Assembly (NCBI GenBank): GCA_021014945.1
Contig: MU266341.1
Coordinates: forward strand, 124,001-188,000
Length of the DNA stretch: 64,000 bases
From: Leucogyrophana mollusca
Taxonomy: Eukaryota > Basidiomycota > Agaricomycetes > Boletales
Direction of reading: 5' to 3'
Of the stretch, positions 1,539-62,071 are shown in pieces. Within the stretch, counting starts at the first letter, position 1. Every line of letters starts with the position of its first letter. Under the pieces are notes generated by a model, which saw nothing but the letters and a program-made list of their open reading frames with translations, was not told the origin of the DNA and made no database searches. Made by a program: the position numbers and the translations under genes.

Positions 1539-4472
1539 TCAAGACACGGCTTCTGCCTTGACAGATTCGTTGTCGGATTCGCCGGGTCCGGACGGGCGGG
1601 ATGGATTCAGTCCCAAGTCTTGTGAAGTAAACGACGTCACATCGAAGGTGTTGGCGGCACCATAATCAGAGAAGTGATGAACTGGGGGAATGGAGTCTTC
1701 TGGTGGGACGGACGAGTCCATGTAATTTAGCCCTCCAAAAGCGTCTGGATTGAAAGCGGAGGCTGATGCGTCCAGCGCTCCAACCGGAAAAGGATCATGC
1801 TGCAAACTTGCGAGCATGCTCGACGTTGTTGGAGTGTGACTCATGGCATGCTGAGGTGGCCGAACTTCCATGGCGTTGAAGCTCTCCTGCCCAGCCATAG
1901 GGGACAAGGTGAAGAACTGTTGCTGCATCACCGGTTCTACGGACGCTGCGACGGAGTTCGTGGACAGCGCTACGCTCCTCAGCACGTTCACGGCAATCCA
2001 GTCACTGTGGCTCGTCAGTACAGTACTAGGGATGCAACGACTGCTCACTTACTCCAAGAATAATTTCATGATCTGGAAGGCACCGAATGCTGGGTCGCTT
2101 CGAATTGTCTGTATAGGCGAAACCAGTGAGATGAGGATATGCTTCAAGGGGAACGGCTCCTTACCAGATCCCTCATGACCTGGCTGGTCACATATCCCCA
2201 CCTTATCAGGACGCTTCGCGAACTCATCGTGCCCCTCTCGTCTCCGCTGCCCACCCGCTGCCCCATGAGCCTTTCACAACACTTGTCGGCCCATGCCATC
2301 ACTTCCCTCACCGGCTCGCTGCTCTTGGCTAGGCTATCCATCATTGCGACGAACTCGACCTCTAAGAGCTGGACTAAATCCTCGTGGCGACAATTACACA
2401 CCAGCGCGGACTGGTTCCGGACAGACTCGAAGTCGACTTTTTGCCACGAGCGGCGCATTTCAGACAGCTGCTTCTGGTTCGTGAGGACAGTGTTGAGAGC
2501 CTGGGTAACCTGGTAGATATCCAGGAACCGTACTGCAAAAGAGGAGCCGGTAAGTCAAAGATAGTAAGGGCTGTAGGTTTCCTCATACGTACACACAAGG
2601 TGTCCGAAGCGTGCGCCAAGCTCGACCTTGGGTTCAACGAAGGTATTGCCATACCCATCCAGAGCAAAGAGTAATATCTTCTCCATCTTGCTCGCGAGTT
2701 GTCGTAGGCTTCCTAGGGAAGCCGTTGGGATAGGTGAGAGCATTTGTGACCGAAGGAACTCGAGAATTTCCTGGAATATGGATCAATGAGAATGGCAACC
2801 TTCAAAACAACACAGGCAAACTCACATCATAGAGAATGGCATCAGCCTTGGCCATCAATCCTGCGATTGCGGGAGCATGCACAACTTCGCGGTGGTTTCC
2901 CGTTAAGCTCGACCAGAAACCCCGCAAATGCATCTCGAACTGATCGAATCGGAAAGCGCGCGCACTTTCAAGTACGGAATCTAAATGATCCTGAAACCAG
3001 CCCCACACCTCCCGAGCCGCGATACTGTGAGGAGATGCCGAGTTGGATCCGATGGCTTCCTCGATTGACGGGAAATGGGGCATGTGGCGGACCGATATGT
3101 GTTGCTGGGAACCCCCGAAGGCAACGGGCCCACCTGCGCCTGAAGGCAGCGATAAGCTGGGCTGAGCAGCGAGACCAGACTCCGGCTGACTTGCGTGGCG
3201 GCGAATGGACGCATGACTTGGGTACGAGTTACTCCTTGCGGCGACAGCCTGTGCTTGAGATAGTAAGCTGCCAGCAGTAGGGGTCTTGTCACTGATGTCT
3301 TCATATGATAGGCTGGCCTTTAGATCACCCGTGAGCGTAAGAGAGTTTCGCTTTGATGCGCTGGAGCCCTCGGAATCTTCGTCATCATCTTCATCTGACC
3401 GCTCTTCGCCTTTGTTCTCCGATGATTCCTGTGCAGCGCGCGCCGCGTTGATAGATTGCTGTCCAGCATTGTTGTTTGATTTGCGGATATAGTCTTGAAG
3501 CCACTCGGCTTCGGCCGAAGTAGCGGGACGGATGCCGCAATCTAAAAGAGCGCTAATCAGACTTCTCCCATCATCATCAGACGAAGCAGTGCACGCACAA
3601 TGATATTTACTGTTTCCGCGAACGCCCAGGCGTCGTGTTTTGATCGTTGGGAAACAAAGCCTGATAGCCTTGCCCAATGTCGCCGTGTTGATGTGCGGAA
3701 TCCCGTACTGGTCGCAGACCCGCCGATATGAAAAGTAAAGACCCTGACGAGGTACATTGCCGTCGGGATAAGGGGCATAGTTGGCAGTCAACCTGCGAGA
3801 CGGCGATGAGACGAAGCCATGGGAAAAAGACGGGCAGACTCACCATGCCTGTACAAAGATCTGCTTGGCTCTATCAGATGCACTCGTGGTCGTCGCCACT
3901 CGCACATTAGCTGCCAGTTTTTCCAGTGCGTGATCAGGACTGAGAGACAGTCTGCCGAAAGCGCCAGCGGGATGGATGGTATCTTGATTAGAGGGCAAGG
4001 TTTGACCAGGCCCGTACATAGTAGGATAATCGGAAGGACTGAGAAACATGGAAATGTCTTCCGTTTCGCTGGAGGAAGAATGGACACTCTCGGTATCACG
4101 AGGGTACGGAGAAGCAGCAGCACGGGCCCTGAGATGGCTTTGACGGATATGGCCTTTAAGCGCAGGATTACTAATGTTATGGTTGGGAGGCGAATGACCT
4201 GGAGAAGACATGTCTGGGGGAGGAAGAGAGAAGCCAGACGGGTGGCGAAGCTGATCGGCTGTCATATTGTACGAGAGACGGTATGGATCGTCTGCTGCGG
4301 CGGACATTCCGGAAGGTATACGGGGGATGCCACCCTGGGAAGATTGCGGACGAGAATTAGGAGAATGAGTAGAGGACGAAGACACGGAATTGGAGCGAGA
4401 GTGAGGGTGGCTAAGGGGGAGAAAGTCGAAAGGGATGCCTGAGGACATTGTCTGCATGTTGACAGCAGCCAT
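1539..4472 (-). CDS. RFX-family transcription factor
   Basis: A sequence-specific DNA-binding regulator of the RFX winged-helix family (relatives: S. pombe Sak1, yeast Rfx1). I start at ATG 4472; an in-frame ATG at 4601 would add 43 residues. Residues 1-210 are Ser/Pro-rich and disordered. An intron at 3793-3843 then leads into the RFX domain: W-L-T-A-N-Y, GLYFSYRRVCDQYGI, TLGKAIRLCFPTIKTRRLG and RGNSKYHC, a near-complete match to the wing-helix consensus. After an acidic serine stretch comes the RFX dimerisation/extended region (EVWGWFQDHLDSVLESARAF onward), spread over several exons. The last exon (1539-2048) is a Gln/Pro/Ser-rich tail. Family RFX proteins act in DNA-damage and cell-cycle repression or cAMP signalling; which applies here cannot be told. 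Inner exon borders between 2050 and 2800 are approximate. Confidence 0.9.
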
Positions 4473-21958: not shown

Positions 21959-23748
21959 ATGTTCCTGCCCCCTCGAGACATTCTCCCCTTGCTCCATTGC
22001 CCTCTCTGCGACCCGTCTGCAGTCCTCGTCAATCCAACAACTCTGCACTGTGGCCACACCATCTGCACCAGCCACGTCCGCTCGCAGTCATGCCCCATCC
22101 CGACCTGCAGCGCCAGCCGCCCTGGTGAACTCACCCCAAACTTGCCATCCTCCTCTCGTGTCGCTTTCTTTCCCGCTCTCCCAGCTGCCCCAGACGACCC
22201 TTCACAGGCACTTCCGTCGGATGCCGTTACGAGAGCAGACGTCATCATCGCTAAAATATTACCCCTCGTGCAACAGGCGGCCGCTGCCTTAGACGTTCCG
22301 GGAGTTCCCTTTGTAGACACCTTCAATGATTCCGGCGATGACTCAGACGATGACCCGCCCCCGTCGGGCGCGGGCGGGTCTACAGGTCGGTCTCCGAGCC
22401 CATCATCCTCTCGCCCGCGCAAACGTATCCGTCGCCATACAGACCAGCACCGCTCTGACCCTCCACAATCTCGCCATGATCCGCTCACTGACTTTGAGAA
22501 GGAACTCACTGCGGAACTCACATGCGAGATATGTTTCATGCTTCTCTATCAACCCGTTACGACACCATGTCAACACGTACGCACGCCATCATCTTTAGTC
22601 GTTGCATCACCTGACCTTTACAAAGACATTTTGCTCCAAATGCCTTCAAAGGTCCCTCGACCACAGCCTGCTCTGCCCTCTCTGTCGCGAAGAGCTCCCC
22701 GGATACGCCTATTTCCAAGACCACCCGCATAATAAAGTCATCCTCTCCTTGCGTTAGTTTCCTTGCTCCTCGCTGCTTACAAATCTAACGTTCCGTAGTG
22801 CTCAAGGCATACCCTGAAACTTACGCCGAACGTGGACACGCTATCGAGATCGAAGAACGCGATGCCCGTCTAGACACCCCCATCTTCGTCTGCCAACTAT
22901 CCTTTCCCGGCCTACCCACCCTCCTCCACTTCTTCGAACCACGTTACCGCCTGATGCTCCGCCGGTGCCTCGAATCCCACTCTGCCACTTTCGGCATGAT
23001 CATGCCCCCACGCGCAGCACCTCTCGCGGGCATCGGCGTCGACGCCGGGTGCGAATTCGGCACGATGCTCGAGATCCGCAGCGTGCAGATGCTCCCAGAC
23101 GGGCGGAGCATGGTCGAGACGTGGGGCACCCATCGCTTTAGACTTTTAGAGCGCGGGACGCTCGATGGGTATATGATTGGCCGGGTAGAACGCATCGATG
23201 ACGACGAGGATGACCTGGATGAGTGGGCGTTTCAGGCGGACGAGCCGTCGACTGTACCACTCCCCCCTTCACCATCTACCGCGTCTCTGTCCTCGTCGAA
23301 TTCCTCCTCATCTACATCGTCATCTCACTCTCATCCACTCCTCGCCCATCTCACCCACACCGCGCCATCCACTTCACCCCCTCCCATTCCTCCCCCGCAA
23401 AGCACCGCCGCCCTCATCTCCATCTGCGGCGCCTTCCTCGACCAGCTCCGCGCAGGAACAGCCCCCTGGGTCGTCCAGCGGCTGAACCACACCTACGGGC
23501 CACAGCCCCCCGCGACGGACCCCGCCGCGTTCAGCTTCTGGATGGCGCTCGTGCTGCCGATCGACGAGCACGAGAAGGCGAAGCTGCTGCCCCTGAAGAG
23601 CGCGCGGCTCCGGCTGCAGCTCATCGTGCACTGGATTGGGCAGCTGAATAATAATTGGTGTGGTAACCCGTTTTCCCCCGTTTTTGCATTGTGCTGATGA
23701 GTGTCGTTCGATGATAGGTGGTTCTCGAGTGGGTGTGTTGTGATATAA
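21959..23748 (+). CDS. Double-RING and LON-domain protein (LONRF-like E3 ligase)
   Basis: Likely a ubiquitin E3 ligase. Residues 18-60 hold a RING-like motif CPLC...HCGHTICTSH...CPIPTC. After a Ser/Asp-rich linker and a basic patch, a second RING begins at TCEICFMLLYQPVTTPCQH and, after an intron, continues TFCSKCL...CPLCREELPGYAYF. A short intron then leads into a LON substrate-binding domain: IFVCQLSFPGLPTLLHFFEPRYRLML, ATFGMIMP, GTMLEIRSVQMLPDGRS. A low-complexity Ser/Pro/His insert of about 60 residues interrupts the LON domain before LISICGAFLDQL and WMALVLPIDEHEKAKLLPL. The last exon adds WFSSGCVVI. The family includes human LONRF1-3; TPR repeats found there are absent here. Confidence 0.88.
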
Positions 23749-29890: not shown

Positions 29891-32800
29891 TCAATCCTCA
29901 GAAGAGGGGACACCCACCATTTCAACGAATACCGGTAAAAGCTGGGGGATATGGTGTAGGTCTGGGGGCTTCAGTAAATTAGGTGCTTTCCCCTTCGCTC
30001 TCCGAGGTTTAGGAGGGGGAGGAGGCGGTCGTGAATCCTGGGGCGGCAGGTGCTCTTCATTGGAGCGACGCCGTTGGGGTGCGCTGGGCTCCACAGAAGG
30101 CTGAGGTGGCAAAGGTTTATCGAGGCGAGAAAGTGGTAGCTCTGAAAGCGAGGCTGTCGGTATTGGGGGAACAGGGGGTACATCTCGCACATTTGGCGAT
30201 GAGCGCGAAAAGGTCATAGACTTGGCGCTCCGGAGTGAAAATGCACGTTTGCGGACTGATGGTGGTTCCTGTGTCGGTGGTGGCGCTAACGGTCTGCGAG
30301 GTGCAGGTCGGGCTGAAGGTGACCGTGGTGGTGCTTTGGCCGGAATGTTCTCCTCGCTCGAGTCGTCCTCATAGCTCCCCGAACTGTCCGTCTCATACTC
30401 ACTCGAGTCCTCCTCACTTTCATCGTCCGTCTCCTCCGCAGCAAGATCATCAGCATCCCCCTGCACCAGCTCCCCAAAATTAATCTCGCCCACAACACCA
30501 TGTACAAGTGCCTGCGTGGCCTCGTCCTCGGCGTCTGCATCATGCTGCCCTTGGGCCTTCCCAAAGCGCCTTCGTACCTTGTTTTCGTACGCAACCTTTA
30601 GCTTGTAATGATAGAGCGTGATCGCATCAACTTCTGCGAGAATATTTCTGCGCTCATCGCCACCGTGTGGGAGGAGGTACTCGAGACTGATAGGGTCGCC
30701 GATGCCCTCACGGACAACGGTGAGGAAGAGCTCGATCCATTTCATAAGACTGTCGAAGAGACCCTCGCCTTTGGAATGTACTTTGTGTACGAAACTGTAG
30801 AAGGATTGTTCGTGCCTCTTCACGAGGTCGATAAACATCTGGACGGTCCGATGTGGGTCTTCTTGACTCACTGGGATACAGTTAAGCAAGAGTATGCAAG
30901 TCGAGAGGGTAGATTAAGACTCACGCTCTTCAGTCTGCTCCACCGTTCTGATGAGGTCATTGATAAAGTTCTGCATGTCTCCTAGGGAGTCAGCTATACT
31001 GGCAGCTCTGTAGACCTGTGCCAGAGGCGCATAGAATATCGTAATGATATCCTTCAGTAATTCTGATGTTACCCCCTGAATGTGGCACGTCCAATCAGCC
31101 CAGCACCAGACATGTCAGAGGGTTCATACCTCGAATATAAGTGCGATAAGCTGTTCCCTATCTCTTAAACGTGAATACAGCTGGGACAAGACCTTCAAGT
31201 CCTCGAATAGCCAAGCATCGTCGTCCTGCGGACCGTCGTCATCGTCCGAGTCCGCAAGGGCGTCACGCTGGCGAAGGTATGCGGCGTGCGCGTGGTGAGA
31301 CCGGATAACACGTTGCATCTGGGACCGGTTGAGCACAGGCTCTTCGCCTGAGCGAAGGACGATCGTGAGGAGGCTGTGTTTCTCTTCGGCTGTGGCAAAT
31401 AAAAGCAAGTATGAAGAATGACACTCGAAGAAGGGGGTAACAGGAAGAACGGTACCTGCATCTGCTTTGTATGTATCCTGGATCTCCCTCGGGGCGTACA
31501 CAAATAAGCGAATTTTCTCGCAAATCACCTCATCGTCGACTTTGGCCTTTACCGCCTCAATATCTTCTTCCAAGGCTTTGACTTCTTCTGTAAGGGAGCT
31601 CGTGAACATTCTGCAAATCCATAACCACGTTAGAAGGCAGTCGACGGCGTCAAATAGTAATATAACTCACCGTTGAAGTAAGCTTCGCCCGCCAAACGGC
31701 TGCGCAAGGAAGATGTCCAGCACGCCTATCCACACAATAAGTTGAACACTTCTTGCACAGACATGTCATTGAACAGCTCAACTTACTGCGGATCATATAC
31801 ACTGGGTTACTGATCTTGAGTGCCGTCTTGAGCACGAAGTAAGGCATGAGCCCATGTATCCGTTTCAGGCTAGCGAACGTCTCCGACGAGTTGTCAGCGG
31901 CGACGAGCATTTGGAAGATCGTTGATGCCAACCTAAACCACGTATACATTTAGGCCAGACAACCGGGTATACTAACAGACGTACGATATCCGCGCCCATT
32001 CGAGAACGGCTTGGTAGTTGGATGGCAACCCGCGAACATCAGGGGTGACTTTGATCGTCGCGAAGACATGTGTCAGACCATCTATCTCGGAGCAAGCCCG
32101 TCAGGGACACAGAGTGTGTATAAACAGTCCACGATCTCGCACCTTTCCCCATAACATCCCCCTTCACGCTCTTTACAGCGTCCCGCAGTCCATCCACACG
32201 GCTCGCAATCTCTTGTGCAAATCGTTTCCTCCCGTCCTCTCTCAGCCTGTCGGCTTCCTCGCGTCTCCGTGCATCATCCTGCTCCTCCGCGCTGAGCGTC
32301 GTCGGCCCTGAGAGCAAGAATGAGCGGAGCACAGGGGAGGAGGCAATACTTGACGAAGCCATCAAGCTGTGAAGGTAAGCGCGGAGAGTCAACCTATTCT
32401 TTTCGCGCGAGAGCCGCGAGGGGAAGCCTGGATGAGATGGTGACTGTGGGAGGGACTCGGTGCTTCCGTCGGAGAAGGTGCCGTTCATCGACGAGGCCGC
32501 GGTTCGCGACATGAAAGGGAGGTTTGAAGAGGGTACGTTTACTGTGGTGCGATCTTTCGCCGGCGGAGAGTTGATGCCTTCGTCTGGATGTGCTTTGCGG
32601 AGCTGCGGAGACGATGTCAGCGGCTGAGTAGTACTGAGCGAGAGAATGGTGCACCGACTTCGTCTGCTAGCGTTTTGAAGTCTCCGTATCTGCGAGATAC
32701 GCACACTTCGCGCTCCTCGGAGAGCCGTGTCCGGATGATGAATTCCTTTGGTTATTCAAGCTCCATTGAGGACGTTACATGAGTGGTAAGAGTTAACGGA

Positions 32801-47496: not shown

Positions 47497-47620
47497 CGGA
47501 AGTGTGGAAGGTGGCAAGGCGTAAGCGTGACACTTCGTTCTGTGACACGATACTACGGGTGCGTGACCGTCGCGCGTGTGGCATATTCCCTTCTGTACCG
47601 AACTACCGATCGCGACAACG
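47497..47620. promoter_or_regulatory. Bidirectional promoter, med20 and orc4
   Basis: The two start codons (47496 minus, 47621 plus) are 124 bases apart, so transcription of both must start within this stretch. No TATA box is present. Confidence 0.7.
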
Positions 47621-49965
47621 ATGCCTAAACGCAAGGCGGGCGAAGATTTCAGTCTACCATCGTCTCCTTCAAAGCGGACAACGCGCTCAAGTGCTCGAAC
47701 TGCAGATGAAGCGCCGTCAGGTTCCAGTCCGCGTCGCCCCCCACCTAAGCGCGCTACCCGAAACACGAAATCCCAAGTTGAGACTCAAGCCGAAACTTCG
47801 CCCCCGTCCGCTCGCACAACCAAACGAAATCCCCGCGCGGCTCCTCAGCGGCGGGGCGCAGATTCTGCTGTCAAAGCTGCCTCAAACACGTCAAGCAAGG
47901 ACACCCTGGAAGCGGAGGATTCTGATAGCTCAGATGAGCTGAACCTGTCCCCACCCAAAAACCCAGTGCAACCTGTGACTCCACCCCCTAAATCCCGCCC
48001 TCGGGTTGTGATGCACTCAGTGGAAATCACTACTCCTGCATTTCTGTCTTCTAAGAAGTTAGTATCGACGACCGCGTCGCCGGCTCCAAGTGGCATTCAC
48101 GCACAGCGGGCGTCTGGGAAGCCCCAGCAGAGGCCCCCTTCTACACCTTCAAGACTCTCTCCGCTGAAGCCCGGCCTACCCCCTGATAAGGCCAGTTCGT
48201 CCACGTTCCCTTCAACCCCTTCTAGGAAGACACAACCCGCTGCTCCTCAAGCGTCACCATCTCGACTCCCCAGAGTGCAATTATCATCACCTGGAAAGCC
48301 TGATCCCCAGATTACTGCCTCTCCCTCGAAAAGTCACCCAGCCGTTCCTCAGTCCCCGACGCGTCTGCCTCGTGTTCTACCTCCGCATCTCATACCTTGT
48401 CTTCAGCTACAGAAACGTGCTACATTGTCCGCACTTCAAGATAATTCTTCTACAGTGGTGGAAGAAAGTGGCTCCAAAGAACCTAATACTAACAATCTTG
48501 CTTTCGGGCAATTGCGGGACCTGCTCGCTGGTACTGTCAATCGAGGGGAAGGAAACAGCTGCCTTCTTCTGGGACCGCGGGGAAGCGGCAAGACTAGCGT
48601 AATTTTCTCAAGGTCTCCCCATTGATGTCCGTTGACATACCCTATCAACAGCTTGTCGAACAAGCCATTCTTACCCTTCCTAGTAGGCCTATCATCCTTC
48701 GGCTGTCTGGTCATGCCCAACACAACGACCGCCTTGCCTTGCGAGAGATTGCCCGACAGCTATCTCAGCAGACAGGCAAATCTTTCTTATCCGACTCGGA
48801 CGGGGATCCCGAAAAGCTGGACGAGGGCGACAATCCGTTCTTGGATGCTGGCCCGTCTATCTCGTTACCACCACCATCTCACCTACCTGCGCTGATATCT
48901 GTCCTCCCAACTTTGTCGCGACCTACCATCGTCATACTTGACGCCTTTGACCTCTTTGCCTTGCATGCCCGACAGTCATTATTGTACTGCCTTCTGGATA
49001 CGGTTCAGAGTTGCAGGGTTGGACAGGGTACTAATGGCATAACTGTCATTGGCGTGACAACCCGGATCGACACGATCAATTTGCTCGAGAAGAGGGTGAA
49101 GAGCCGATTTTCCGGACGAATATTACGCACCGCACCACCAGCGAACCTTGCGGATTGGACCACAATAGCAGAACGTGTGCTGTCTGCCCCTATTGACAGT
49201 CCCGATGGAGAATGGCCGCAGATGTGGAAAACTGCCGTGGAAAAATTCTTGAGCGAGCGGATGGTGTCTGATTCCTTGAAGCAGACTTTTTCCCTGACTC
49301 GTGATGTGAGGATGCTCAAGCAGATATTGGTGATGAAATTTCCATGCCGTTGCTCCTTCATTGAAATTGATGGGCTCACAGATCAATGTGGTCGCGGAAC
49401 TTTGTGCATCTACGCCGTTCCCTACGCCTTCTCAACTCGCCTCCGCGCTGGCCACCCAGCGCTGGCGTGTCCAGTTTTCTAATCTACACAGTATGTCGAT
49501 TTTTCTGAAATGCTGGTTGGCACACCGTTGAATGCACACTATCCAGCGTTATCGTATCCTTCAGCTTGCCTCCTGATTGCGGCGATGCACGCGGACACTG
49601 CAGGACATGATATTGTCAATTTTGAAATGCTCTATGATTCTTTCCGGGATCAATTCCGGGCATCTGCGGCGGCTCCTGTCCAGATAGAAGGCGGCAGCAT
49701 AGGTATGGCGAGGTGCACGCGTGAGGTTCTCATGAGTGTACGTCCCTGCGACATGAGTGGTACCGTGGCCGCTGTCTCACACTATCCTCAGGGCTTCGAG
49801 CAACTTCTGGCGGCACGGATATTTGTGAGCATTGCCGCACCGTCCCCAAATATAGCCCCGCAGTTCGTGTGCTATCGATGTATGGTTCGGAGGGAGGACG
49901 TTAAGAAGGCAGTCGATAAGATGGGACAGACGAACCTGAAGAAATGGCTTAGTAAAGCACAGTGA
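47621..49965 (+). CDS. orc4: Origin recognition complex subunit 4
   Basis: An AAA+ subunit of ORC, which loads the replicative helicase. From ATG 47621 (MPKRKAGEDFSLPSSPSKR) a disordered, S/T-P-rich and basic region of about 260 residues precedes the AAA+ core. Walker A is LLLGPRGSGKTS, followed across an intron by LVEQAILTLPSRPIILRLSG. The Walker B region is TIVILDAFDLFALHARQSLLY, close to the ORC4 consensus. Sensor motifs lie in VIGVTTRIDTINLLEKRVKSRF. Further exons give INVVAELCASTPF and QRWRVQFSNL, ALSYPSACLLIAAMHAD and HDIVNFEMLYDSFRDQF, the ORC4 winged-helix part. The stop is at 49963-49965. The gene looks intact; its long N-terminal tail could be a CDK target, an inference from the SP/TP content. 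Confidence 0.92.
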
Positions 49966-56523: not shown

Positions 56524-56857
56524 CTCCATGTACACCTACGCTCTCGATGTCTGGGCTGGTGCTCGGCCTTCTGACCCGGTATCGTCAGTATCTAGTTCAC
56601 ATATGTAATGTTGGCTATGCCCGCCACACCTTGCGGATTACTCAAGGATTTCGGATTCAACCTGATATGATTGATCAAGGTGTCATATTGGAACGAAGCA
56701 AACGTGTATTTCAAGTAGTTAAAGAGAAGGGACCCTAGGCCTCTCTGACTTTGAAACAGCGGGTACGGGTGGTACAGGCGGCATGGGGAATTGGGAGAGA
56801 GTGGCCTTATTGCTATGGGGAGCTCGACTATCCTTCGACGTCGCTATCAGCAGTACA
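56524..56857. other. Convergent intergenic region
   Basis: The 3' flanks of the PUB gene and the repeat-protein gene meet here. No gene is seen. Confidence 0.45.
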
Positions 56858-59800
56858 TTAGTCGCCGGTTTGAAATAGAGTGAAACCAGTCATCTCACCT
56901 GCTGATTGATCATAAGCTCTGGCTCGCTGAAGAACCAGGCTTTCCCTTCGATGCGAGGTCGACTGGGCGCGTCCAAGATGATCAGGCGCGTGATGGCTCG
57001 ACAGTGGTGGAGTAATCATCGAACTCCTGCGGTCAACAGACAAGGCAGCGCCCCTAGTAGGTGACTGCCGCTCCTTGGCACGCTCTCTGTGATCAACTGA
57101 CTCAGGGGATTTTAGGCCTCCACTGGACGCTCGCCTGTGAACGCCCGGAATCATGGATGCGCCAAAGGACTTCACTGCTTGTGATAGACGCGATCCCGAG
57201 GACCGCGGACTCGGATTGGAAGAATCTTTAGTAGCTGGCGGTGATGGCGTGGACAAGACAGGGCTTCGTACGCGAAGAGGTGGCAGTGGGGGGATCTGCT
57301 GCTGGGGTGGAGATACCATGCGGAAACCGGCACCACTCGGAGACCGGATAATGACAGTTCCGGAGCGTGAACGAAGGAGACGAGGACCTGACGCATCATT
57401 GAGAGGCGGTGGTCGACGGCGAGGACCTATGGGAACTTCGTCGTGTTTTTTTGCGTGTGCGTGGGCTAGATCCTGCGCATAACCACTGGGCGTCCATATA
57501 ACGCTGTCACGGAAGACCTCAACGTGGAGCTGATGGTGGGTCTTGCCAACTTTGAGTGTCGGCTTGCCGTTTTGATAAGCAATTGCCTCGGTGACCAACT
57601 CTGCATGCGTTTTCCTCCGCCGGGTAATTGGTTGACGGACGTCCAAGTCAAGGGCTGCAGGATAAATGTCGAGGTAGGGATATATCGGACGATCTGTGGA
57701 CCTGATGAGGAGATGGAACCAACTAAGCGCAGCCCTCGATACTCACAGAGCTCCAAAACAGGATATTTCGATGGGAGCTGACAGCTGGCTACGTAGAATT
57801 CCGCGCGATTGTCCTCGGGCGCCGCATCTGTGTAGCCATAGATGTCGAAATGCGGATAGACAGCAGGATCTGGTTTAAAAATGTAAGGAGGCGAAGACTT
57901 GACACAGAAAAACCGTACAAAGGTTGAATAACGGATATCTCGCCTGTACTCTGATTGGTACGGCATTGCGCCTGTCTGCATTCCCGGAAGCGTCTGGAAT
58001 TTGCACTGACGAAAGCGCAGGATAAATATTAAAGTGCGGATACACCGCTGGGTCTGACTAGATGTGAGCTGAAGTGATAACCATCGGAATTGGACAACTC
58101 ACAGATATCGAAAACAGGGTAATTATGTTCTGTCCTCATAAAAGATTGACCCACACATGGCTCTCCAGAAGGCCCAGGATACAGGTCAAAGTAAGGATAG
58201 ACAGCGGGATCTGAGTATTACATAGGATCAGAAAAGCAACTCTTTATATGAACGAACGTAGTACGCACAAATCAACAGTGAAGGATACAGCGCCGGTAGC
58301 TGCACGATGATCTCCGCCTCTGTGTCCGTCGGAACCGACAGTGCCGCTGAAGGCCCAGGATACAAATCAAAGTGCGGATACACGGGAGGATCTGCAGTCA
58401 CAGTTGGAAATTGCACTTGTTTAGCGTGATAGGAAGTGACTTACAGATGACGAGGGAGGGATACGAAGACGTCAGGTGCACAGAGACCTCGCCACTTGCA
58501 TTGACCCGAGGCGTAACACTGGGATATAGATCAAAGTGAGGGTAGACAGCGGGATCTGCAAATATATTAGGGATAGATGCGCTTCTGAGGCCCAGGACAC
58601 GCACAGAGAATAATTGTTGGGTATTCCGATCGTAGCCGTACATCGATTTGGTCCGCCATAGCGCCATGTGTTGGAGACGCGGCCGCAGCGACACCGGGAT
58701 ACAAGTCAAAGTAAGGGTAAACAGACGGATCTTGACAAATAGTTCATTCATAGCAAAGGAGGCTGGATAAGGTGAGAAACGTACAGACGACGAGTGCCGG
58801 ATATAACATCTCCAGCCGGACGTCCACCCCGCCAGCCCTCTCTGACGGCAAACTCACAGGAGGGTAAATGTCGAAGAGTGGATAGGCGGCAGGATCTACG
58901 AGTGGTTGGAATCGCTTTCGTACAAAGGAAATGCGTAACTTACAAGGGCAGACATCCGGATAGACACGACTCAAAGACACAGATACGGACGGCAATGTTA
59001 CCTGAAAACGGGACGCAGTCAGCAAAAACCTCGAGCACCCTAGTGAATACTAACTTGAGCCTGTATTTTGCGCTTGCGGTCACTTGCCAACGGAACAATA
59101 GGGTAAAGATCAAAATGAGGGTAGACCGCTGGATCTGATGAATAATACGTAAGTATTTGTGTTGATCGTGACGCCACCCAAGACTTACATAGGTCAAAGG
59201 CAGGGTATGCAGTACCCAATAGTACAGATGGCCGGGACACTGATTGGGGGTTGGCCTTACGGCTGTCCGCTTGGTCTAGTTGGGGGTACGGCTGTACGAA
59301 AGGATACACCCAAGGATCTAGACATTGAGTGAGAACGGAAGTCTTTCTTCGAAAACGATGGCAAAATACATATATTAAACCAGGGATATCGTGGAGGAAG
59401 CTGCACTGAGAAGTCGGCGTCTTCCTCTATTGCCACTGGTGGATAGATCCAATCCAAGCTCCTGGGATAACCAGACGGATCTGATGATGAAACGAGTCAA
59501 TACACCAAGACCGATAATGGTGGAGCCACATACAGATATCGAAGCAAGGATACGCGACTGGTAACTGAACTACAATCTCCTCGAGAGGTCTCCTTGGTTC
59601 TGATGCGCCGAGATGACATTAGTCGAACGGCTACCACAACTGACTGGGATCGACTCACTTGTCTCAACAGAACCCCTCTGGACCTGGGGATCTAAGAAAA
59701 GCGTTGGTATGGCATACGATCCCGCAATGGGCCTTGAAAACTCGACTCACATAGATCAAAGTCCGGATATTGAGAGGAGCGCTCTTTGAAGGACTGTATT

Positions 59801-62071
59801 ATTTCAGCACCCAGCGTCGGGTACGGCGACACGAATGGGTACACAGATGGATCTAATAAACCGTTTAGGCTTGTTGGTGCATGTTGAGACCAACTTTAAC
59901 TTACATATGTCGAACCATGGATAATAAGCAGAGAGTTTCGGAGAGGTAGTAAGAGGTTCAGCCAGGGCAGCATGATATATAGAGTCGAGATTAAACGGAT
60001 ATTGAGCGGGATCTGGAGATAAAAGTTTAGACAGGGCGTGCACAAACGGGAGACGAGGCTCACAAAGATTAAAAAGTGGATATGCGGGCGAGAGCGCAAC
60101 TATCACTCGTTGTTGGACTAAAATTGGGACAGGTGTTTGCTCTAACTTTTCTGTTCGTCCAACCGACGGATAGATGTTGAAATGAGGGTAAACGGCGGGA
60201 TCTATTCAACAAAAGCTCAGCCTCTCAACGATGCTGGCAACATTGAAGGGGGCTCACAAATATCAATAATGGGATAATGGCCAGCCTGGCTGGCGGAGTC
60301 AGTGTCTTCGGAAGACATGCCACCAGTCTTTGAGGATGTGGGATATAAATCAAAATGCGGATATGCCGCCGGATCTGCTGAAAGGTCAGTCAAAAGAGTT
60401 TGGGATCAAACAATGGCCTCACAAATATTGAGCTGAGGATACTCCGAGACTAGACCACCACACCCTTTCAATTGGACCGAAATCGAAGACGGAAGCATAT
60501 CTTGCTTAGGAGTCCAATAAGGCCACACCATGTTCCAAGGGGTGCAAGGGCACTCTGTATTGAAGAAGTATCCATTCGAGTAGGCTCCACCCATAGGGGT
60601 AAGTGGCGCATCTTCAAGCATGCGCTGTCCGATATCGGGAGATGGGAGTCGATCAATGTTGGATACGACTGAGATCCAGTCATCATCCGGAGGACCCCAG
60701 CTTGTGGCAGTTGTAGGTGTCAATAGCACCGACCCTTGTAACCGGCGGTCGAGATGCACAGACGGCAAGCGGTAAGGGGATGTCGGTGATCCCGGTAAGT
60801 CACTTGGGGGTCCGGCTGAGGTGACAGACCAAGTGTAGTCCGCAAGATTGAGCTCTTCAGGAACAGCACGTTCCAGCGCATACTCGTCCATGGGTTCTGC
60901 GGCCTCGTTCACTTTAGCATCCGGAGCAGGTTGGTAGGATTCCGCCATTGGTGCAGGGTCTAGCAGCGCACTGGCTCTCCAAGAGTTTACTCGCTGCTGC
61001 AATTCTGCCTGTGCGGCGTGAGGGTTTGCTGACTGGGGGATGGGGGAGAGAATATGCATCGGCTGAGCTACAGGGGGTGGGCTCTCTGGTTGCTGGACTG
61101 GTTTTGACACTGCCGGCTGAACCGCGAGAGAATCGAGGCGGTCAACCAATGAAAGCTTTCTCGGGACATGACGGGATGTTCCAACTCTCGACGTTGACGG
61201 CTGCGCGGCCATAACCATACCGATATCCCACCGCTCTTCGCTGACTTGCTCCTCGGCAAATGTCGTCCGACTATCCCCCCGCCAATGATGCACCGACGAA
61301 ATCTGTGAGGGGCCGGGGGGTGTGATAGTCTCTGTAGTGTCCCGCGAAGATCCAGCAATCCATGCATCAAACCAACGAGCTTTGACCAAATCGATGTCAA
61401 ATTCAATCTGGCCACTGATTGGCAACTGTTGATGAGCAATGGAGGGCGAGCGAGCCTCGAACAAGTGTCCCCAAAGATATTGCCAAGAATCATCAGAAAT
61501 GCGGGGAGTAATGGTCACCCCATTCTCAGTGATATGGAGGTATAAGCATAGGCCAACAGTGCTCGGAAAATTGAATTCTCGCGCAATGGCTGTCAGCTGT
61601 CCGTACATCTGCAAAGAATCTCAGCGTCAAGATATAAATGATCTCAAAGAGACGTACGGATGGGAAAAGTGGCATAAGGATGCCTTGAGACAGCCGGTGT
61701 CGTGGACCCGTCGAAAGCATGTTACCCAATTGTCCCTGATCAAGGGGGAAGTCGGGCGGGGGGAGAAGGACAACTAAATTTTTCGGGGTGCGCTGGGCAG
61801 AGCGTTCACGTGAGTCGCGCACGCCTGAATTTTGGTAGGATAGCGTGGAAGTTCTACGGGGTTGAAGTCTTGGTCGATCCGGAGAAGTCGCCAATGACCG
61901 GGCGGGAAGTACAGCATGATCCAAATCTGCTCCGAGACCCAGTGGCCCTGGGCCGAAAGTTCGAGCGTGAAGTGAGTCCGCGTCAGTTTCTGGCGGGCTG
62001 ATTGGGTGCACGGCTCTCGGAGCGGCATAGGAGGGCATTGTATGGTAAGTTGGACCTGCAAAGTGAGACAT
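56858..62071 (-). CDS. Giant Y-P repeat protein, 1404 aa, one exon per repeat
   Basis: Function unknown. Exon 1 (62071-61658, residues 1-138) and exon 2 (61608-60423, to residue 533) form an N-terminal part with KNLVVLLPPPDFPLDQ, HRLSQGILMPLFPS and MYGQLTAIAREFNFPSTVGL, CLYLHITENGVTITPRIS, then LPISGQIEFDIDLVKARWFD and a disordered Pro/Ser region. Residues 534-1126 are 15 tandem units, each one exon, with core Y-P-A-V-Y-P-H-F-D-L-Y-P and end Y-P-x-F-D-I. The last exon (57693-56858) gives YRPIYPYLDIYPAA, ITRRRKTHAELVTEAIAYQN, HHQLHVEVFRDSVIW and a basic Ser/Pro tail. All exons after the first sum to 3801 bases, closing in frame. No signal peptide or membrane segment. ATG 62071 is the first in frame. 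Repeat introns are 48-59 bases. Confidence 0.88.
57747..60374 (-). repeat. Array of 15 exon-encoded Y-P repeat units
   Basis: Units in protein order (bases; codons): R1 60374-60258 (39), R2 60201-60064 (46), R3 60012-59905 (36), R4 59852-59751 (34), R5 59691-59659 plus 59599-59534 (33), R6 59480-59370 (37), R7 59317-59189 (43), R8 59134-59055 plus 59001-58944 (46), R9 58895-58785 (37), R10 58730-58605 (42), R11 58555-58445 (37), R12 58391-58269 (41), R13 58210-58103 (36), R14 58053-57919 (45), R15 57869-57747 (41). Every unit begins with AT (AC in R14) completing a Tyr codon whose T ends the exon before, and has a length divisible by three. Typical start: YPAVYPHFDLYP. Typical end: YP-x-F-D/N-I/L. 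Confidence 0.9.
58944..60012 (-). repeat. Probable duplicated three-unit block R3-R5 / R6-R8
   Basis: R3 and R6 share an N/S-L-D-x-I-Y start and a Y-P-W-F-D/N-I end. R4 and R7 share Y-P-x-V-Y-P-F-V-x-P-Y-P-x-L and end Y-P-x-F-D-L. R5 and R8 are the only units with an extra internal intron. The paired order argues for duplication of a three-exon block. The extra introns differ in phase (1 in R5, 0 in R8), so that third pair is weaker. Confidence 0.55.

What the first reader, a model, noticed from the sequence alone, without database searches (positions are those of the whole stretch)
56858..62071. A 1404-residue protein in which each repeat is one phase-1 exon and every bounding intron cuts the same tyrosine codon
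Fifteen units of 33-46 residues (core Y-P-A-V-Y-P-H-F-D-L-Y-P) are encoded by consecutive exons. All 16 introns bounding the units fall after the first base of a Tyr codon (T/AT, once T/AC), every unit length is a multiple of three, and intron lengths stay within 48-59 bases. The rest of the gene closes in frame. Symmetric 1-1 exons can be gained or lost without frame damage, so the array could vary between strains or by exon skipping. The N- and C-terminal parts look like conserved folded segments. I know of no described function.
Basis: partly seen in the sequence, partly recalled or inferred. Interest (0 to 1): 0.88.

Follow-up and report, generated by a model that had tools for sequence, protein, structure and literature searches.

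The report
Mushroom protein array, splice-split tyrosine motifs
A fungal gene carries a long row of similar protein motifs, each cut in half by an intron inside the same tyrosine codon and rejoined by splicing; protein data from related mushroom fungi suggest the same layout there, in a family of unknown function.

Summary
All 16 introns bounding the 15 units split a Tyr codon after its first base (15 T|AT, 1 T|AC). I found no Pfam, PDB or Rfam match for it and no paper. New evidence: ORFs called on contigs (taken to be unspliced DNA) read into the introns, so the split Tyr appears as Cys, mostly followed by Lys/Glu ('YPYLNICE'). 78 of 120 listed ORFs show it; ten uninterrupted transcript-like ORFs show 165 Tyr and 0 Cys. 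The split-tyrosine site is thus probably widespread in the family. The unit is an 18-residue aromatic block with two YPX3[LI] motifs that AlphaFold does not fold. Best reading: a multivalent motif scaffold whose beads are rejoined by splicing; Bro1-family V domains are a testable partner. Function is inferred, not shown.

The parts
56719..62071 (-). corrected gene, 21 exons / 20 introns, 1432 aa
   Evidence: identical to public protein P0001 from Met12 on
61357..61780 (-). conserved N-terminal segment (LVVLLPP..QGILMPLFPSMYGQLTAIAREFNFPST..DAWIAGSSRD), interrupted by intron 61657-61609
   Evidence: conservation; model of a relative, pLDDT 81-86 over residues 101-150 of P0157
61609..61657 (-). 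intron 1 of the gene, phase 0, 49 nt, not part of the array
57659..60441 (-). YP-core array: half core, 15 units, half core; 59 YP dipeptides
60375..60422 (-). split-Tyr intron 1, T|AT, 48 nt
60202..60257 (-). split-Tyr intron 2, 56 nt
60013..60063 (-). split-Tyr intron 3, 51 nt
59853..59904 (-). split-Tyr intron 4, 52 nt
59692..59750 (-). split-Tyr intron 5, 59 nt
59600..59658 (-). extra intron inside a unit, phase 1 in a Lys codon, 59 nt
59481..59533 (-). split-Tyr intron 6, 53 nt
59318..59369 (-). split-Tyr intron 7, 52 nt
59135..59188 (-). split-Tyr intron 8, 54 nt
59002..59054 (-). extra intron inside a unit, phase 0, 53 nt
58896..58943 (-). split-Tyr intron 9, 48 nt
58731..58784 (-). split-Tyr intron 10, 54 nt
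58556..58604 (-). split-Tyr intron 11, 49 nt
58392..58444 (-). split-Tyr intron 12, 53 nt
58211..58268 (-). split-Tyr intron 13, 58 nt
58054..58102 (-). split-Tyr intron 14, T|AC, 49 nt
57870..57918 (-). split-Tyr intron 15, 49 nt
57694..57746 (-). split-Tyr intron 16, 53 nt
56719..56843 (-). last coding exon with tail SQFPMPP and stop
   Evidence: FP[MLI]PP near the C-terminus of 53 of 120 listed family proteins

Best explanation
An undescribed scaffold protein of mushroom-forming fungi, probably cytosolic (inferred; no localisation predictor was run): a small conserved N-terminal segment, Ser/Pro-rich linkers, and a flexible 'beads on a string' array. Each bead is Y-P-x-(F/L)-(D/N)-(I/L)-Y-P-A-V-Y-P-(H/Y)-F-(D/E)-(I/L)-Y-P and holds two YPX3(I/L) motifs; in this gene strict beads start 36-46 residues apart. 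SHOWN in this gene: most exons of the array run from the middle of one bead to the middle of the next, and the intron cuts the central Tyr codon (phase 1), so splicing joins two half-motifs into each bead. FOLLOWS FROM THAT: any such exon joined to any other regenerates an intact bead, so valence can change by whole exons without frame loss. INFERRED: the array works by multivalent binding of a partner (or itself) through the aromatic beads. Leading partner candidate, about 0.2: the V domain of Bro1-family proteins (Bro1, Rim20/PalA), which binds YPXnL-type motifs.
For: Spliced protein matches the public one. Split-Tyr site beyond this species: 78 of 120 listed ORFs show YPxxx[ILV]C, 74 of the 109 without an NCBI source; Lys or Glu follows in 69 of 93 with a looser pattern, as GTAAG/GTGAG donors after T predict. 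Thirteen retained-intron signatures 'C..DP.VYP' in 12 of 241 proteins, and a 74-aa ORF, P0241, has DPAVYPHFDLYP..YPTFSICK (31). The ten listed full-length proteins without an NCBI source have 165 Tyr, 0 Cys (67). Non-Tyr/Pro core positions are constrained and linkers are not, over 857 cores. YPX3[LI]: 9-33 per protein in 120 of 120 listed proteins, own included. A three-core stretch gets no fold: pLDDT 57.5, pTM 0.30. YPX3L binds ALIX through its V domain (PMC4907476, passages); YPXL/I recognised by PalA (title in the reference list of PMC12345238, 54). Two loci with the ALIX_LYPXL_bnd family in this genome.
Against: Binding was not tested. The core is conserved beyond YPX3L (F, D/N, central AV), and only 3 places in the window protein have L/M before YPx1-3[LI] (77), the residue I recall as preferred by ALIX. 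Low AlphaFold confidence with 25 sequences does not prove disorder. Introns carry no residual similarity to each other (mean pair score 4.03 against 4.10, SD 0.17, for shuffles), so exon duplication is not shown from DNA. The read-through test uses protein letters; 42 of 120 ORFs lack the strict sign (80), and in P0133, P0143, P0147, P0166 and P0228 the first boundary keeps Tyr (27). Beyond Hygrophoropsis the unit order is not clearly kept (Suillus: first 3 of 10 units).
Confidence: 0.5

Rival explanations
1. Specific case: the array is a polyvalent ligand of Bro1-family V domains (Bro1 and/or Rim20), a hub that gathers ESCRT-associated adaptors at endosomes, the plasma membrane or septa.
For: 28 YPX3[LI] in the window protein, 9-33 in 120 of 120 listed proteins; ALIX binds YPX3L through its V domain (PMC4907476 passages); two V-domain loci in this genome, both with the string FYN[QE]L that in ALIX holds the contact residue Phe676 (recalled).
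Against: No interaction data; the position before Tyr is mostly V or variable, with 3 strict L/M matches; the central AV and the D/N are more conserved than such a motif needs.
Confidence: 0.2
2. Self-assembling aromatic sticker-and-spacer protein: evenly spaced Tyr/Pro beads make a gel or plug, for instance at the septal pore of Agaricomycetes.
For: Tyr every 4-6 residues in beads, separated by variable spacers; disordered, partly proline-rich septal-pore proteins accumulate at pores of a filamentous fungus (PMC10023807 passages; Aspergillus oryzae, recalled); conserved unannotated Agaricomycetes genes include Spc14 and Spc33 of the septal pore cap (PMC8893723 passages).
Against: Only an analogy: no localisation; specific residues (F, D, I/L, V, A) are conserved beyond what generic stickers need.
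Confidence: 0.2
3. The units fold together into a regular structure (beta solenoid or extended beta repeat) that AlphaFold failed to model.
For: A weak V-x-V-x-L pattern precedes the core (positions -8, -6, -4 in 857 cores).
Against: pLDDT 57.5, pTM 0.30, no strand of 3 or more residues; spacing between cores varies.
Confidence: 0.12
4. The repeats are YXX-Phi signals read by clathrin adaptor mu subunits.
For: Position +3 after each of three core Tyr is F/L/I/V in most of 857 cores; 56 Y..[LIMFV] matches in the window protein.
Against: Pro at +1 recurs after the core Tyr, which this signal does not need; the motif is very loose; no search for membrane segments was made.
Confidence: 0.06
5. Artefact: the region is non-coding and the exons are chance frames.
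For: None found.
Against: Public protein, 235 proteins at E <= 0.001 in a database of 5.8 billion, ten uninterrupted transcript-like ORFs.
Confidence: 0.01

Closest known systems
YPXnL-type ligands of ALIX/Bro1/PalA V domains (viral late motifs, PAR1, P2Y1, PacC/Rim101)
   Same: YPX3L and YPXL/I strings; V-domain proteins present in this genome
   Different: known ligands carry one or a few motifs (papers seen, and recall); here 28, paired in beads, and the family is not known to bind
Proteins made of symmetric phase-1 (1-1) exon modules (recalled: animal extracellular modules)
   Same: most repeats are one exon; all bounding introns phase 1
   Different: fungal; a motif array without predicted fold; the intron lies inside the conserved motif rather than in the linker; secretion was not tested
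Septal pore proteins of fungi (SPP/SPA; Spc14, Spc33)
   Same: proline-rich, no known domain, conserved in Agaricomycetes (Spc14, Spc33)
   Different: no sequence comparison with them was made; localisation unknown

Membership tests
Symmetric-exon repeat protein | all introns bounding the repeats in one phase | tested here: met
   16 of 16 phase 1
Symmetric-exon repeat protein | each repeat is a single exon | tested here: not met
   13 of 15; two units carry an extra intron
Symmetric-exon repeat protein | same intron position in relatives | tested here: met
   split-Tyr read-through in 78 of 120 listed ORFs (77, which asked for one more residue), 13 retained-intron signatures; indirect, DNA of relatives not available; five ORFs lack it at the first boundary
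Bro1/ALIX V-domain ligand | YPXnL strings | tested here: met
   28 YPX3[LI] and 11 YPX[LI]
Bro1/ALIX V-domain ligand | L or M before YP (recalled preference) | tested here: not met
   3 places only
Bro1/ALIX V-domain ligand | motifs lie in unfolded protein | tested here: inconclusive
   pLDDT 57.5
Bro1/ALIX V-domain ligand | direct binding | not testable with these tools
   no interaction or complex prediction available
Any Pfam repeat or domain family | match over the curated cut-off | tested here: not met
   window protein 0 families at E <= 10. In relatives only scattered weak matches: three families in one member each of 16, best E 0.0009, cut-offs not shown; one in 1 of 6, E 0.018; two below cut-off in 1 of 5
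Septal pore protein | localisation at the septal pore | not testable with these tools
   no expression or localisation data held
ERH-like or other known fold, N-terminal segment | structural match | tested here: inconclusive

The most novel reading that the evidence does not exclude
A mushroom-wide scaffold whose binding motifs exist only after splicing: each YP bead is built from two exons across a split tyrosine, so exon number sets valence, and the beads recruit Bro1-family adaptors in numbers no ligand known to me reaches.
Probability: 0.15. Interest if true: 0.85.

Novelty: new variant of a known kind. Interest (0 to 1): 0.62.

Why it matters
It is a gene family found in several orders of mushroom-forming fungi, without a domain, paper or function that I could find. 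Its architecture ties intron position to a short motif rather than to a folded domain, so motif number could change by whole exons. That makes it a natural system for asking how motif valence evolves. The partner question can be put to a simple binding test.
Full report
WHAT WAS CHECKED. The finding describes a minus-strand gene of about 5.2 kb. I rebuilt it from the DNA. Removing 19 GT-AG introns from ATG 62071 gives exactly 1404 residues without an internal stop. Sixteen of the 19 introns bound the 15 units, and all 16 cut a tyrosine codon after its first base; 15 are T|AT and one T|AC. Their lengths are 48-59 nt.

CORRECTIONS. First, two of the 15 units have an additional internal intron (59658-59600, phase 1 in a Lys codon; 59054-59002, phase 0), so 13 of 15 units are single exons. 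The better model is 1432 aa, 21 exons, 62071-56719.

FAMILY. A whole-length search gave 235 proteins at E <= 0.001, the gene's own included, of which the best 120 are listed. The named ones are, as far as I recognise the genera, Agaricomycetes, among them Boletales, Agaricales, Polyporales, Russulales, Gloeophyllales, Corticiales and Hymenochaetales (order names recalled). All 120 have 25-68 YP dipeptides, median 45.5. The window protein matches no Pfam family. The gene is apparently single copy: apart from one weak match on another contig (E 0.005), the matches in the own genome lie at this locus.

THE UNIT. Over 857 cores in the 120 proteins the consensus is Y-P-x-(F/L)-(D/N)-(I/L)-Y-P-A-V-Y-P-(H/Y)-F-(D/E)-(I/L)-Y-P, preceded by a weak V-x-V-x-L and followed by a variable linker. 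The cores were picked by a pattern that fixes Tyr and most Pro positions, so only the other positions are evidence of constraint. The intron of L. mollusca lies in the central tyrosine. Therefore an exon of the array typically holds the second half of one core, a linker, and the first half of the next core.

IS THE SPLIT SITE CONSERVED? DNA of other mushrooms was not available. I used an indirect test. When an ORF is called on unspliced DNA, it reads past the T of the split codon into GT, giving TGT (Cys) and then, from GTAAG or GTGAG, Lys or Glu. On the acceptor side AG|AT gives GAT (Asp) in place of Tyr. Of the 120 listed proteins of the N-terminal search (11 have an NCBI source), 78 have YPxxx[ILV]C, and 74 of the 109 others. 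One search, which asked for one more residue, counted 77, with 89 sites Cys and 47 Tyr; the second half of each core always ends in Tyr and adds to the 47. With a looser pattern, 69 of 93 Cys are followed by Lys or Glu. In the 120 full-length proteins the counts are 2192 Tyr and 17 Cys, the latter in 12 proteins. The ten of these 120 without an NCBI source (P0011, P0046, P0050, P0058, P0083, P0100, P0101, P0106, P0112, P0116) are uninterrupted long ORFs on contigs under 8 kb, which I take for transcripts because the genomic gene is broken by introns; they show 165 Tyr and no Cys. I also find 13 complete retained-intron signatures (Cys, 8-26 residues, Asp/Asn-Pro-x-Tyr-Pro type) in 12 of 241 proteins, and a 74-residue ORF, P0241, with DPAVYPHFDLYP near its start and YPTFSICK further on.

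RESULTS AGAINST. Forty-two of the 120 ORFs lack the strict sign. Twenty-seven of these carry strings such as DEACK or ETCE, where a related Lactifluus protein, P0114, has ETY, which suggests a split Tyr outside a YP core; others stop before the array. Four show only Tyr (P0122, P0125, P0135, P0138). P0133, P0143, P0147, P0166 and P0228 keep Tyr at the first boundary and show Cys at the next, so a boundary intron can be missing. The clusters are not independent species, and this test reads protein letters only.

EVOLUTION OF THE ARRAY. Against Hygrophoropsis aurantiaca, the first eight of ten strictly defined L. mollusca units find their best partners in the same order, each above its best paralog; the last two do not. 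Against a Suillus protein only the first three units are in order. In 4 of the 54 listed proteins with at least four strict units, some neighbouring units are at least 95% identical (P0027, P0028, P0040, P0054), so whole units appear to have been duplicated recently there. The introns of L. mollusca show no similarity to each other beyond shuffles, so any duplications here are old or the introns have drifted. Retention of 8 of 16 boundary introns would bring a stop within the intron.

STRUCTURE. Three cores with two linkers, modelled from 25 sequences, give pLDDT 57.5 and pTM 0.30 with no strand of three residues: no fold. The N-terminal segment of a relative is predicted with pLDDT 81-86 over residues 101-150 of P0157; structure searches give nothing above noise.

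HOW IT MAY WORK. Shown: gene layout here, and by read-through a split site in many relatives; conserved bead and variable linker. Inferred: a flexible multivalent scaffold. The bead contains two YPX3(I/L) strings, and the window protein has 28. YPX3L is an ALIX-binding motif (PMC4907476, passages seen), and YPXnL can vary in spacing (PMC8402826, passages). [quoted passage not shown] This genome has two loci with the ALIX_LYPXL_bnd family, one matching the solved BRO1 chain 4jio at E 1.2e-9, and both have FYN[QE]L. Against a simple Bro1 reading: the residue before Tyr is rarely L/M, and the bead is conserved beyond the motif. I give the scaffold reading 0.5 and the Bro1 partner 0.2.

VERDICT. 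The exon-per-repeat claim and the 3' end needed correction. The layout is a new variant of exon-encoded repeats: the intron is inside the motif. Function stays open but testable.

Noticed in passing
window 62071 and 62038: The public model of the L. mollusca gene starts at Met12; Hygrophoropsis and Suillus proteins support the upstream Met1.
   Followed up: partly
P0079 (Moniliophthora roreri): A relative bears the name 'salivary gland secretion 1', with no Pfam match; likely a carried-over misnomer.
   Followed up: partly
P0121 (Stygiomarasmius scandens): A relative is named 'Autophagy-related protein 1..' (cut in the listing) in UniRef; no Pfam match. Unverified name.
   Followed up: partly
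family proteins upstream of the array, e.g. P0043: A second short repeat, PW..VWPY, recurs in some relatives, up to 11 loose matches; 3 loose matches in the window protein.
   Followed up: no
C-terminal part after the array, window about 57640-57500: Two similar strings, KTHAEL and KTHHQLHVEVF, recur in relatives as THxELHxxV..KSHxxLHxxVF: a small repeated motif after the array.
   Followed up: no
window 47576-49479 +: ORFs match AAA_16 (below cut-off) and ORC4_C (above): an origin recognition complex subunit 4 gene.
   Followed up: no
window 2805-3791 -; 22798-23694 +; 29894-30889 -: RFX-type DNA-binding ORF, LON substrate-binding domain ORF, and a DUF3818 (PX-protein) ORF.
   Followed up: no
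introns 60063-60013, 59188-59135, 58943-58896: These three boundary introns are multiples of three without a stop, so retention would keep the frame; apparent retained introns occur in some annotated relatives.
   Followed up: no
Russula-type ORFs such as P0185, P0208: The ORF ends in DEACK or ETCE upstream of any YP core, perhaps the same split-Tyr intron in a diverged context.
   Followed up: partly
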